Assembly (NCBI GenBank): GCA_022661535.1
Contig: JAKULF010000006.1
Span: forward strand, 4,273,001-4,337,000
Origin: Eutypa lata
Taxonomy: Eukaryota > Ascomycota > Sordariomycetes > Xylariales > Diatrypaceae
Length of the DNA stretch: 64,000 nucleotides
Reading direction: 5' to 3'
Part shown: piece by piece, positions 34,264 to 40,653 of the stretch
Layout: every line of letters begins with the position of its first letter
How positions within the stretch are numbered: the first letter of the stretch is position 1
Translations under genes and position numbers: made by a program
Notes under the pieces: generated by a model
The model's input: the letters and a program-made list of their open reading frames with translations, nothing else
Database searches by the model: none
Told to the model about the DNA's origin: nothing

Positions 34264-35530
34264 TCACTCTGTAACTACTCCCTCTGACAAGAGTTCCCCA
34301 TTGCTATCCTCCGTCACTGCATGCTGACGTGCCCAATCGTGAATCAAATCAAAGTTTCTGCAGGTATGAGGTACTTCGAACTCTGGTACGTACTTATGTC
34401 TAGATTCTGACCACTAAAGCGTATTGGTTAATGGACGTACTGCAGAAGATATCAAGCTGCTGTGAAACTGTACTTCAGGCGTGCTCATGGAGAGGTGACT
34501 AGTGGTCGAGATATGACTGAAAAGTAAAAGGGGGGTCAATTGAGGGATTCTTACTAAAGCCAGGTGTTAGTACTACGTACGTAGTGTATCCCGAAATTGT
34601 GTAAGTATGTGGGTAACGCTGACCTTCAAAGGGCATTACCGAGATATCTACACCGCACATGAGGGACTGGCGGAGATGATCAACACAGTGATCCAAGTGG
34701 TTTACATCAAAACCAGGAGGCTTTTTTATGGACGCATCAGACCCCGAAAGGTAATATTCTGAATATAACACTTTCCGGAGTGAATGCTTTCGACTGGTGT
34801 CAGTACAATGACAGTCGTTAAGATCGGGTATGGGTAGATCTTAGCATGACCCAAGCCTACCTACTCACCAGACAATGAAGGGAGTGAAAGACATCAATAT
34901 TAATTATGTATCTCTCCTCTGGATCATTTCGTAGCATTGCCGTCTGATTCAGTAACTTGTTGGCTTCGTCGCTAGAAATTGCTATATCTCCCACTATACT
35001 CCCCAATGAAGCACACTATCAATGACCGAACCATAATTACAGGGTTAAGTAATAGATTAATGGAAGACTTACTCAGATAGAGCTCCTCCCACTTTCCGTC
35101 AACTTCTGGAGACGGGGTTCCTTGATATGGAGTCAGGTTCGGACTCAAGGATGACTGAAATAACCGTTCCTCATTCTGGATGAGATGTTCAACCGGGCCT
35201 TAATTTCATTCTTATCAGCTTCAACTAACTATCTCCATCGCTGGGAAGAGATTTTGAATCGCCACCAAGGACGGCAGGCTTACTATATAATGCCTCCGTT
35301 GCAAATCCAGTGGCATTTTGGTTGTGGACTGTTGCTAGGAGCGACAAATTGATGATTGATAGGACAACAACGAGAAACCAGGCAATGACAATGCACGGGA
35401 TGGTAATATGATAAACAGTATATCGCTTCTTAGTGAAGATAAAGCCACTGGTATCTTGACATTCCTCGGGGCGGTCTTCAATCTGTGTAAAACTTTCATT
35501 GAACAGTGCTTCTCTCTCGAATCGATCCAT
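34264..35530 (-). CDS. UstYa-like (DUF3328) oxidase A of a putative RiPP cluster (5 exons, 259 aa)
   Basis: Exons in gene order: 35284-35530, 35073-35198, 34869-34993, 34624-34786 and 34264-34382. The total is 260 codons with stop, and every junction is GT-AG in phase. The N-terminus is cytosolic, with one membrane helix at ~42-66 (PCIVIAWFLVVVLSIINLSL). The lumenal DUF3328 domain starts PVEHLIQNEERLFQSS, then YQGTPSPEVDGKWEELY. Two HxxHC motifs are intact: HSLHC at 161-165 and HLDHC at 196-200, the second followed by VDHLRQSLMCGVD. The end is HTCRNFDLIHDWARQ. In the ustiloxin pathway UstYa/UstYb perform oxidative cyclisation of the precursor peptide. The precursor gene lies 0.8 kb away, divergently transcribed. 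The last intron is unusually long at 241 bases. Exons 2 and 3 have exactly the lengths (126, 125) found in gene C. Confidence 0.9.
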
Positions 35531-36327
35531 ATCCGCGGACCAAAGAAGGTATCTCAGCTACTGTCGTAAGTTCATCGATTCTTCACAAACAGCCGAGGAA
35601 GAAGATCAAAGGGGAATTGAATCAAAGCCAACAATATGTCGACCAGAGGTAAGGAGGTAGAATGTCCCTCGCCGAGATCTTCAAGGCGTCATTGAGAAGA
35701 TGGTGGGGCAGTAAACATTGCATCTTTGCTGACTTGCTGTACCAATCGGGTGCATTGCTGAGCTGCAGTTCCTTTTTCTTAAGGAAAGTGTTGATACATG
35801 GGGGTATTGATATATTCTCTTCGTGCGCTAGTTCGGTACTTAGGTAACTGATATATTTATTGATTGGGTGCTTCGCTAGATCTGATGGAATTTTAAGTCT
35901 TGTCTTAAATCGTGGCTTATGTCTAGTGCGACGCATCTCAGCCAAAAAACGCACAACGGGAGTTTTTCATGTTGTACCATCCCGCTCTGCCGATGGGTGG
36001 CAGGTCGAGGACGTAAATTGAGTCGGTAGAAGTGTTCTCATAATTCAAAGTTAGATCGATAATCGGGAAACCCACACGTAGTATCGCATGATTGATGTAC
36101 CGGAACGATTCACTATCGCATATGCTAGCACGAATGCAAAAGGACACATTATGCCGCCTTCTGATTTCAAAGGTCTCACATCCTGTCAAGCTGTGAAATT
36201 ATCTATATATACCGCCCCGATGCCTCACTACTCAATAAATCTTGGAGTGTACACAGACTATATTCTATGCCCATATCATACTACCATATAACCAAATAAA
36301 ATAAAAAAACTCTAAATTCGCGACATC
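35531..36327. promoter_or_regulatory. Divergent promoter region between UstYa-like A and the RiPP precursor
   Basis: About 800 bases between two divergently transcribed genes. A TATA-like tatatata lies at 36204-36211, ~120 bases before the precursor ATG, and the leader just before that ATG is A-rich. No gene recognised inside. Confidence 0.45.
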
Positions 36328-36537
36328 ATGGTTCGGGGACTTGTCAGCCTTTCCACCCTCATCCTTGCTGCAGTTGGCAGTGCTGCTCCATTAACGCCCA
36401 GCGTTGGTACGGAAACTAATATTGGGGTGCGCACTGTGGACGACGAGACCAAGACCGTGCCTGATGTCTTCTTCTATGCCTGGGGTGAAGAAACCAAGCG
36501 CGAAGAGTCTGTGCCTCACATCGCCATCGTCAACTAG
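36328..36537 (+). CDS. Putative dikaritin-type RiPP precursor peptide (69 aa, possibly truncated)
   Basis: It begins with a signal peptide (MVRGLVSLSTLILAAVGSAA). After a leader ending DDETKT comes a 15-residue block, VPDVFFYAWGEETKR at 44-58, closed by a Kex2-type Lys-Arg. Inside it Tyr-Ala-Trp-Gly precedes acidic residues and KR, as the YAIG core does in the ustiloxin precursor UstA. A second block starts EESVPHIAIVN and stops at a TAG (codon 70). The frame continues behind this TAG to 36627 and has EAKR at the matching position. The two blocks repeat with an 18-residue period, and the TAG falls in the column of Trp52. The three neighbouring UstYa-like genes support the RiPP reading. Core borders and the mature product are inferred. 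Only one complete core is readable as written. Confidence 0.7.
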   Translation: MVRGLVSLSTLILAAVGSAAPLTPSVGTETNIGVRTVDDETKTVPDVFFYAWGEETKREESVPHIAIVN

Positions 36538-38713: not shown

Positions 38714-39439
38714 GGATACGGACAATCTCATTGGGGGTAGGTTTAAGCAGGTCTCAGACAATATATCAATTTGCCACTAGCAGGATCTGCAACGCTGCAG
38801 TAGATAACTCAAATATTGGGCAATACGCATCGTATTGGAGCTGTCACACTCATGTCCATTCACTTCCAGATTCAGAAAGATTTCCCTGTAGTGGGACATC
38901 AGAAGCGACTGAGGCATGTATCTCCGTGACGGATCATCAAGTTTTGCTTCTCGTCAAATTTGTCGTATTGATTGTTGATTGGATAACGTATTTCCCGTCA
39001 GCTGAATCACTGGTCACAACCGGTCTTCGTTGCCGCCACGATAGATACAAGTGACCCCTTGATCCCCGACGTTTTGACTAAGCGGTGAGCATCAGTGACA
39101 TGACTTGACTCTCATCGAGGGGCAAACGGGCAATTTCTTATCTGGGTGTCTTATGCACAACGAAAACCAACCTGCGAAGGTTGACGAATCATACTATGAC
39201 AGGCAGCAGCATATACCTTGGCGAATATGACCACATAATTTATTGATACGTGCATTGCATATTCACCGAGAAGAGGGCGTGACGTCCCGATCATGGAAAG
39301 ATGACAACGGCATCGGCGGGATGCCTAGTCGATGGAATGAGCAATCCATCGATGTCCCTCGACATGTTGGACCAGTCTGTCAGGAGCGTACGGTTTTTGA
39401 GAATTTTGCTCCAAGCCAATTTACCTGCGATTGTTCACC
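38714..39439. other. Intergenic within the RiPP cluster
   Basis: About 730 bases between UstYa-like B and C. Nothing recognised. Confidence 0.45.
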
Positions 39440-40653
39440 ATGTCAACCCCGGTTGGCCCTTCTTCGTCGCAAAGGGACAATCTTCAAAACGGAGAATCGC
39501 ATTCTTTGAAGTATAGTATGGAAACAGAACATTTGGTCGGTTCGACATCCGACTTCGACTTCGACTTCCAAAGTGATCGGATACAGCGCCGGTCCTTTCA
39601 TGGTTCCAGAATAAGATGCGCGACACCTTGGATACTGTTGTTTACAGTAGTGCTGTTATGGGCTGGCTCCTACTTCCAGCTACAGGCTAATTATGAATCA
39701 AGTTATCAGTCACCATATAGTCAGTATTTCCTCCTTTAGAATTCGAACTTTGGGGTAGTTCTTTTAGATAGGAGTTCTAACTTGGCTATTCTAAGAGGCC
39801 CAGCGCAGCATCTAATTCAGTATGAACAACGACAATTCTTTACCTTGTCAGCTTCCAATCCGAATAAATACTCAGGACTACCATCTCCAGAGCTCGATAA
39901 GAACTGGGAGGATCTCTATTCCAGTATGATCTCATGGCCCATGATGCAAGAATAGCTGACTTAGTCACACCGAAGTTGGAATTGTGGCCATATCAAGGGA
40001 TGAGGCAGAAAAGTTGCCAAACAAGACATCAATGCTACCGCATGATGAACAACAGCGATATGTAGTAGGGATAGATGTCTTCCACGCACTTCACTGTCTA
40101 GTAGGTCATACTCGCCATTGCTTGGCTTGTCAGTCTATTAACATCACAATCTTTTGCTAGAACATGATTCGCAAGTTGCTCCATCCCGAATATTACTCTG
40201 AGAGTGATATGAAAGACATAAATCAATCTCATGACGATCTCGATCACATAGATCACTGTGTCGAGTACCTTCGGCAATCAGTGATGTGCAGTGTGGATCT
40301 AACTCCAATCCCCTTTCAAGGTGAGTGACCGGAAGATTCCATCAGAAACTCATCGTGTAGATGAAAATACTGACATACGTGATTAGTAAGTACAAAGTCT
40401 GCATTGGCCGAAATCGTTTAGTAGTTTAAGTCCCCTACGAGTCCCTGACTGCATACGATGTCTCACTGCCATATCTAACAAGCCATAGTGGAGTGATGCA
40501 TAGAACGTATATCAGCCTTCGATGAATGTCATACACACTTGTCGGAATTTCGATGTTGTACGTGAATGGGCAAAGGAAAGAGCCGTGGTAGAAGAATGGG
40601 ATCCTACATATCGAGCAGTGAACGATCCTCTCGATCCAGACACGTGGACGTAG
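39440..40653 (+). CDS. UstYa-like (DUF3328) oxidase C, 3' end unresolved
   Basis: Clear exons are 39440-39719, 39798-39923, 39976-40100 and 40161-40320. The protein has a membrane helix (TPWILLFTVVLLWAGSYF) and then SPAQHLIQYEQRQFFTLS and YSGLPSPELDKNWEDLY. HALHC (172-176) and HIDHC (206-210) follow, the latter with VEYLRQSVMCSVDLTPIPFQ. A C-terminal piece (HTCRNFDVVREWAKERA) is readable up to the TAG at 40651-40653. The strong acceptor before it (ctaacaagccatag, ~40488) is followed by an in-frame TAG after four codons, and other acceptors do not match the phase of exon 4. The last exon may therefore be mis-modelled or damaged. The catalytic core is intact. Copy C is the close paralogue of copy A in the opposite orientation. 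Confidence 0.8.

What the first reader, a model, noticed from the sequence alone, without database searches (positions are those of the whole stretch)
34264..40653. Candidate dikaritin-type RiPP cluster with three UstYa-like oxidases around a Kex2-cut precursor
Seen: a short gene with signal peptide, Tyr-Ala-Trp-Gly core and Lys-Arg cut site, within 6.4 kb of three DUF3328 genes that each carry two HxxHC motifs. Known: UstA/UstYa/UstYb-type clusters (ustiloxin, phomopsin, asperipin) combine a Kex2-processed precursor with UstYa oxidases that cyclise Tyr-containing cores. Inferred: this locus makes a small cyclic peptide with a Trp in the core. I recognise no tyrosinase, methyltransferase, transporter or peptidase beside it, so it would be a minimal cluster.
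Basis: partly seen in the sequence, partly recalled or inferred. Interest (0 to 1): 0.92.

Follow-up and report, generated by a model that had tools for sequence, protein, structure and literature searches.

The report
Trp-core peptide cluster with UstYa oxidases
A fungal genome carries a small gene set, found also in related fungi, that probably makes a chemically cross-linked secreted peptide from an unusually short precursor built around Phe-Phe-Tyr-x-Trp; the chemistry is not yet shown and the set may be partly worn down here.

Summary
A 69-aa secreted-type ORF with one Lys-Arg site (36328-36537) lies among three UstYa (DUF3328, PF11807) genes, each with two HxxHC motifs. It is more than chance: 8 homologous precursors exist (6 carry a species name, all Xylariales fungi) and FFYxW is invariant in 9 of 9 sequences. 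In 4 of 6 named species a UstYa orthologue sits on a contig of the same length as the precursor's contig. Best reading: a UstYa-type RiPP cluster, dikaritin-like but not a textbook dikaritin: no true repeats (6 of 8 relatives carry two unlike units, FFYxW and VFVxW; the window keeps one) and no tyrosinase within 25 kb. Trp, not Tyr, is shared by both units. A cross-link is inferred, not shown. Against full function here: the precursor frame ends inside unit 2, and gene 3 has an in-frame stop unless a downstream splice site is used. Genes 1 and 3 share an apparent [D1,2] stwintron that two public gene models misread. Novelty: new variant of a known kind.

The parts
34264..35530 (-). gene 1, UstYa family, 269 aa, 5 exons, intact; HSLHC 34886-34872, HLDHC 34699-34685
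   Evidence: hand model; PF11807 E 7.9e-53; motifs; P0011, 97% identical
34414..34624 (-). last intron of gene 1, apparent [D1,2] stwintron (inner intron 34623-34554)
   Evidence: protein join agrees with P0011
36328..36537 (+). precursor ORF, 69 aa
   Evidence: 8 homologues; alignment A1
36328..36387 (+). signal-peptide-like N-terminus (residues 1-20)
   Evidence: sequence, crude hydropathy filter; no SignalP
36457..36501 (+). unit 1 VPDVFFYAWGEETKR; FFYAW 36469-36483, Lys-Arg 36496-36501
36502..36537 (+). remnant of unit 2, cut short by the stop; 6 of 8 relatives keep a full second unit ending in Lys-Arg
37836..38713 (+). gene 2, UstYa family, 236 aa, 4 exons, intact; HSLHC 38367-38381, HAPHC 38510-38524
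   Evidence: P0130 and P0131 at 93 and 89%
39440..40653 (+). gene 3, UstYa family; last exon open only from 40504 (279 aa); HALHC 40083-40097, HIDHC 40245-40259
   Evidence: intact orthologue P0010
40320..40488 (+). last intron of gene 3, apparent [D1,2] stwintron at the same place as in gene 1 (inner intron 40321-40386)
   Evidence: P0012 model goes wrong here
42580..43512 (-). NmrA-like gene, possible but untested accessory gene
   Evidence: PF05368 E 1.1e-12; an isoflavone reductase is in the asperipin cluster (passage)

Best explanation
The locus is a small RiPP cluster of the UstYa type. The precursor enters the secretory pathway; a Kex2-like protease cuts after Lys-Arg behind unit 1 (in relatives also behind unit 2); membrane-anchored UstYa oxidases, each with two coppers held by the paired HxxHC motifs, oxidise the FFYxW core, most likely joining an aromatic side chain (Tyr or Trp) to a neighbouring Phe. 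Shown: genes, motifs, precursor conservation, contigs of equal length, and (indirectly) a spliced transcript of gene 1 in a close relative. Inferred: cutting, copper, cross-link, end trimming, secretion.
For: All three oxidases over the PF11807 cut-off with both motifs. 8 precursor homologues; VPD, FFY, W invariant in 9 of 9 while the residue between Tyr and Trp varies A/G/N/S. P0011 is an unbroken 269-aa ORF on a 986-bp contig where the window's gene needs 1267 bp with introns, so spliced RNA. Family biochemistry: binuclear copper, O2-dependent (PMC12435403, parts 1 and 2 of 3 read); dicopper Tyr-O to Phe-Cbeta bond in asperipin-2a (PMC12186524, passages). Predicted model of P0011: anchor helix 38-73, motif helices 158-173 and 194-210.
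Against: No product, no cross-link, no precursor transcript seen. Contig equality rests on lengths, distances unknown; 2 of 6 named species (E. lata, B. mediterranea) show no orthologue in the listed hits (120 of 154, all 6). No Lys-Arg before unit 1, so Kex2 alone would release a long N-terminal piece. No true repeats; nearest tyrosinase match 25.6 kb away. In this genome unit 2 is cut short and gene 3 may be dead.
Confidence: 0.78

Rival explanations
1. The cluster is real in relatives but decaying in this genome: the precursor has lost its second core and gene 3 is dead, so this strain makes a reduced product or none. (Does not exclude the main reading for relatives.)
For: Precursor frame stops inside unit 2; the nearest relative P0002 also has a worn second unit. 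Gene 3 has an in-frame stop when spliced like P0010.
Against: Unit 1 with its Lys-Arg, gene 1 and gene 2 are intact; gene 3 is open if the AG 15 bases downstream is used; the same 69-aa precursor is recorded from 34 contigs.
Confidence: 0.3
2. The short protein is a linear secreted peptide (pheromone- or hormone-like Kex2 product) that the UstYa proteins do not modify.
For: Signal peptide plus Lys-Arg is the general plan of Kex2-processed peptides; in the KEP survey 6120 of 7878 had no DUF3328 gene nearby (passages of PMC7329392).
Against: Contigs shared with UstYa orthologues in 4 of 6 named species. In that survey pheromone-type KEPs were almost never beside DUF3328 genes.
Confidence: 0.08
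3. The UstYa trio acts on another metabolite and the secreted protein is an unrelated small effector-like neighbour.
For: DUF3328 enzymes also modify a non-ribosomal peptide (cyclochlorotine, PMC12435403).
Against: No synthase-type domain among the 20 window proteins scanned with Pfam (not a full annotation, intron-split genes could be missed); core invariance and shared contigs.
Confidence: 0.06

Closest known systems
Asperipin-2a cluster (aprA, aprY, aprT, aprR; passages of PMC6514808)
   Same: Small cluster; Kex2-type secreted precursor; UstYa oxidase; Phe/Tyr-rich core (FYYTGY); no tyrosinase named; an isoflavone reductase, and here an NmrA-like gene nearby.
   Different: Three oxidases instead of one; Trp in the core; no transporter recognised here; at most two unlike units in the precursor, against several copies of the core (that aprA is repetitive: background passages and recall).
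Ustiloxin and phomopsin clusters (dikaritins; passages)
   Same: Signal peptide, Lys-Arg sites, several DUF3328 proteins, Tyr-bearing core.
   Different: UstA has 16 repeats, tyrosinase is needed for cyclisation, methyltransferase and more enzymes; none of these is seen near this set.
Kex2-processed repeat proteins, KEPs (PMC7329392, passages and outline)
   Same: Signal peptide plus Kex2 sites near DUF3328 genes; one KEP type (P-3) has Trp with Pro.
   Different: The survey demanded tandem repeats; P-3 genera (Fonsecaea, Cladophialophora, Galerina, Psilocybe, Coprinellus) do not overlap with the species found here.
Lichen UstYa clans without repeated cores (PMC12048977, passages)
   Same: DUF3328 clusters whose precursor lacks repeats; the authors raise a single-core case.
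   Different: There no conserved precursor was established; here one is found and conserved across genera.

Membership tests
UstYa / DUF3328 (PF11807) | Match over the Pfam cut-off (25 bits) and two HxxHC motifs | tested here: met
   180, 74.7 and 194.6 bits; six motifs; gene 3 in its downstream-acceptor model
UstYa / DUF3328 (PF11807) | Binuclear copper, O2-dependent catalysis (as shown for CctR) | not testable with these tools
   motif residues present; biochemistry only from PMC12435403
Dikaritin cluster (Ding criteria as quoted in PMC12048977) | Precursor with N-terminal leader/signal | tested here: met
   by sequence and crude filter only; no SignalP
Dikaritin cluster (Ding criteria as quoted in PMC12048977) | Repeated core motifs | tested here: not met
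   one unit and a remnant in the window; two unlike units in 6 of 8 relatives
Dikaritin cluster (Ding criteria as quoted in PMC12048977) | Tyrosinase in the cluster | tested here: not met
   genome search PF00264: no match in the window, nearest 25.6 kb from gene 3
Dikaritin cluster (Ding criteria as quoted in PMC12048977) | Methyltransferase, transporter or peptidase | tested here: inconclusive
   no methyltransferase or transporter among 20 Pfam-scanned window proteins; aspartyl-protease-like gene at 31333-33486 of unknown bearing; no S41 match in the genome; MFS search scored 9 of 708 candidates
Dikaritin cluster (Ding criteria as quoted in PMC12048977) | Multiple DUF3328 genes | tested here: met
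   three
Dikaritin cluster (Ding criteria as quoted in PMC12048977) | Side-chain-cyclised product | not testable with these tools
   needs LC-MS
Kex2-processed repeat protein (KEP, PMC7329392) | Signal peptide and Kex2 site | tested here: met
   one Lys-Arg after unit 1; kept in 8 of 9 sequences
Kex2-processed repeat protein (KEP, PMC7329392) | Tandem repeats | tested here: not met
[D1,2] stwintron | Internal intron splits the external donor between its first and second base (abstract of PMC12403724, listing) | tested here: met
   by sequence in genes 1 and 3; end product agrees with P0010 and P0011; splicing intermediates not tested

The most novel reading that the evidence does not exclude
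A Xylariales family of unrepeated, two-core RiPPs in which UstYa dicopper oxidases work on Trp rather than Tyr, for example a Phe-to-Trp side-chain bond across the F-x-x-W spacing that both cores share, with the variable residue x inside the ring.
Probability: 0.3. Interest if true: 0.8.

Novelty: new variant of a known kind. Interest (0 to 1): 0.58.

Why it matters
The surveys I read ask for tandem repeats (PMC7329392) or likeness to known precursors (PMC8403587; antiSMASH as described in PMC7099791); this precursor has neither, so a family present in several Xylariales genera can slip through. It suggests what the missing precursor at other UstYa loci may look like. Its two natural cores, one without Tyr, and orthologues in culturable fungi make the question of which residue UstYa attacks when Tyr is absent directly testable. 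The shared stwintron shows one way in which UstYa gene models go wrong.

Tried and rejected
Chance ORF: rejected on conservation. Pattern alone as proof: rejected, 7 ORFs pass the same crude filter in 20 other UstYa regions. A second copy in the genome: none, the precursor finds only itself at E up to 10. A single ordinary last intron in genes 1 and 3: the phase that fits orthologues P0010 and P0011 would need a GG donor; a stwintron removes the problem. Stwintron as a general UstYa feature of this genome: of 15 rows, two (genes 1 and 3) break off there, the script flagged 6 as reading through, by eye 5 more do, and 2 are hits of the first motif. Fold comparison of the P0011 model with the PDB: 27 matches, 0 with E <= 0.001; no PDB sequence relative at E <= 1. 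Motif letters in print: 22 papers hold one of six terms, 15 listed, none on fungi by title. Three stwintron papers hold no mention of DUF3328, UstYa or cyclochlorotine (term search). RIP as cause of the stops: indices do not point to it (TA/AT 0.74 in the cluster against 0.93 and 0.95 outside; thresholds recalled). MFS genome search unusable, 9 of 708 candidates scored.
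Full report
Setting. The window lies in a 54.5-Mb genome of 29 contigs at C2:4273001-4337000. The nearest named precursor is from Eutypa lata (Diatrypaceae, Xylariales), so the host is probably a related Xylariales fungus; I did not identify it further.

Genes. From the six-frame reading I modelled three UstYa genes by hand. Gene 1 (-, 34264-35530) and gene 2 (+, 37836-38713) are intact. Gene 3 (+, 39440-40653) is open only if its last intron ends at an AG 15 bases downstream of the one that matches its orthologue P0010. 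Pfam puts all three in PF11807 at 180, 74.7 and 194.6 bits, and each has two HxxHC motifs. Genes 1 and 3 are 41% identical. In a quick tree of 70 rows (3 from the window, 67 chosen from the database hits, at least 195 aa) their clades are sisters with SH-aLRT 93, and gene 2 falls in a separate deep clade with Apiospora proteins.

Precursor. 36328-36537 codes for MVRGLVSLSTLILAAVGSAAPLTPSVGTETNIGVRTVDDETKTVPDVFFYAWGEETKREESVPHIAIVN. The protein search gave 9 proteins of 10 candidates, one of them the window's own. The 8 relatives are 69-93% identical; six are named: Eutypa lata, Xylariaceae sp. FL0662B, Biscogniauxia marginata, B. mediterranea, Hypoxylon rubiginosum, Daldinia decipiens. I looked up three of these (all Xylariales); the others I place there from their names and recall. 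V44-P45-D46, F48-F49-Y50, W52, K57 and E59 are the same in 9 of 9; residue 51 is A, G, N or S; R58 holds in 8 of 9 (P0009, a 59-aa fragment, departs). P0003 to P0008, 6 of 8 relatives, carry a second unit: VPD-[IL]-VFV-x-W in five, EPD-A-VFV-x-W in P0007, each followed by KR. P0002, the nearest relative, has a worn second unit, P0009 ends before it, and the window's frame stops inside it. Common to both cores are Pro, Asp, the Phe three before the Trp, and the Trp; Tyr is in core 1 only.

Linkage. No fungal genome collection could be searched, so linkage rests on contig lengths in the protein tables. Precursor and UstYa orthologue show the same longest-contig length in FL0662B (213409; locus tags 588529 and 588532), B. 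marginata (97824), H. rubiginosum (188789) and D. decipiens (452870, orthologues of genes 1 and 2): 4 of 6 named species. From the other side, 5 of 5 named close orthologues (P0010, P0012, P0013, P0130, P0131) are on such a contig. E. lata and B. mediterranea show no orthologue among the listed hits (120 of 154 rows; all 6); gene models spoilt at the stwintron are one possible reason, untested. Distances are unknown.

Expression. P0011, 97% identical to gene 1, is an unbroken 269-aa protein whose only contig is 986 bp. The window's gene spans 1267 bp, 457 of them intron, so that contig should be spliced RNA. This is indirect evidence that gene 1 is transcribed in a close relative; nothing of the kind was seen for the precursor.

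Stwintron. Joining the last two exons of genes 1 and 3 in the phase found in P0011 and P0010 leaves introns of 211 and 169 bases that begin GG. Each contains a normal intron starting at its second base (34623-34554 and 40321-40386) and directly followed by TAAGA or TAAGT, which with the preceding G makes the donor of an outer intron. That is the [D1,2] stwintron of Hypoxylaceae and Xylariaceae (abstract of PMC12403724 as shown in the listing). The public models P0012 and P0013 go wrong exactly here (PFQVSTRSA.., and an end at PFEVV), as expected if only the inner intron is removed. In 10 other UstYa genes of this genome and in gene 2 the reading runs on across this place (6 of these 11 flagged by the script, 5 by eye).

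Mechanism. The CctR study (PMC12435403, parts 1 and 2 of 3 read) shows a DUF3328 protein to be a membrane-bound dimeric, binuclear-copper, O2-dependent enzyme whose HxxHC residues are essential. PMC12186524 (passages) says that UstY enzymes use a dicopper site for bonds such as the Tyr-O to Phe-Cbeta ether of asperipin-2a. The model of P0011 (mean pLDDT 77.0, pTM 0.63, 53 sequences) has a helix 38-73 fit for a membrane anchor and helices 158-173 and 194-210 that bear the motifs; H199, C200, C210 and D213 are invariant in the 53. I infer that the oxidases act on FFYxW in the secretory pathway. A Phe-Tyr or Phe-Trp bond is the likeliest product for core 1; in core 2, which lacks Tyr, Trp is the obvious oxidisable ring. 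That Trp takes part I put at about 0.3. The papers I opened describe no UstYa product joined through Trp, but the searches cover open-licence papers only, and I opened a part of the lists.

What is known. The KEP survey kept only signal-peptide proteins with tandem repeats and found DUF3328 genes beside 1758 of 7878 (passages), so it should have missed this precursor. A Hypoxylaceae survey reports ustiloxin-like RiPP clusters in Hypomontagnella species, H. rubiginosum and H. pulicicidum (passages of PMC8403587); whether the H. rubiginosum one is this locus I could not check, and if so part of this would not be new. The lichen study leaves unrepeated UstYa loci open (passages of PMC12048977).

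Neighbours. An aspartyl-protease-like gene (31333-33486), a CinA gene and an NmrA gene flank the set; further out lie GH35, GST, GH7, hydrophobin and DUF4360 genes. Four of the 20 scanned ORFs besides the precursor had no Pfam match. The NmrA gene recalls the isoflavone reductase of the asperipin cluster, but the genome holds 81 NmrA exon matches and CinA lies between. The nearest tyrosinase match starts 2.2 kb past the window's end, 25.6 kb from gene 3.

Verdict. A conserved UstYa-type RiPP cluster with an unrepeated, Trp-bearing precursor: a new variant of a known kind, well supported as a gene set, unproved as chemistry, and perhaps partly worn in this genome.

Noticed in passing
window 34414-34624 (-) and 40320-40488 (+): Apparent [D1,2] stwintrons at the same place in the paralogous genes 1 and 3; public models of orthologues in Daldinia decipiens (P0013) and Hypoxylon rubiginosum (P0012) are spoilt exactly there.
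   Followed up: partly
L020:2553-2762 (-), i.e. G000:C13:457052-457261: A second short precursor-like ORF of 69 aa with two units, SLYRRGAWGKR and AIYRANAWGKR, about 1.4 kb from a UstYa match at C13:458711; again Tyr and Trp before Lys-Arg.
   Followed up: partly
G000:C6:2187386-2200646 and C6:4078740-4081875: Dense groups of PF11807 exon matches (6 and 4 rows) in which the crude scan found no precursor-like ORF.
   Followed up: no
G000:C2:4339220-4339907, just past the window's right end: Tyrosinase-family matches 2.2 kb beyond the window, 25.6 kb from gene 3.
   Followed up: no
   Followed up: no
window 36328-36537: The protein table records this exact precursor cluster from 34 contigs, so the 69-aa form is not a one-off of this assembly.
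   Followed up: no
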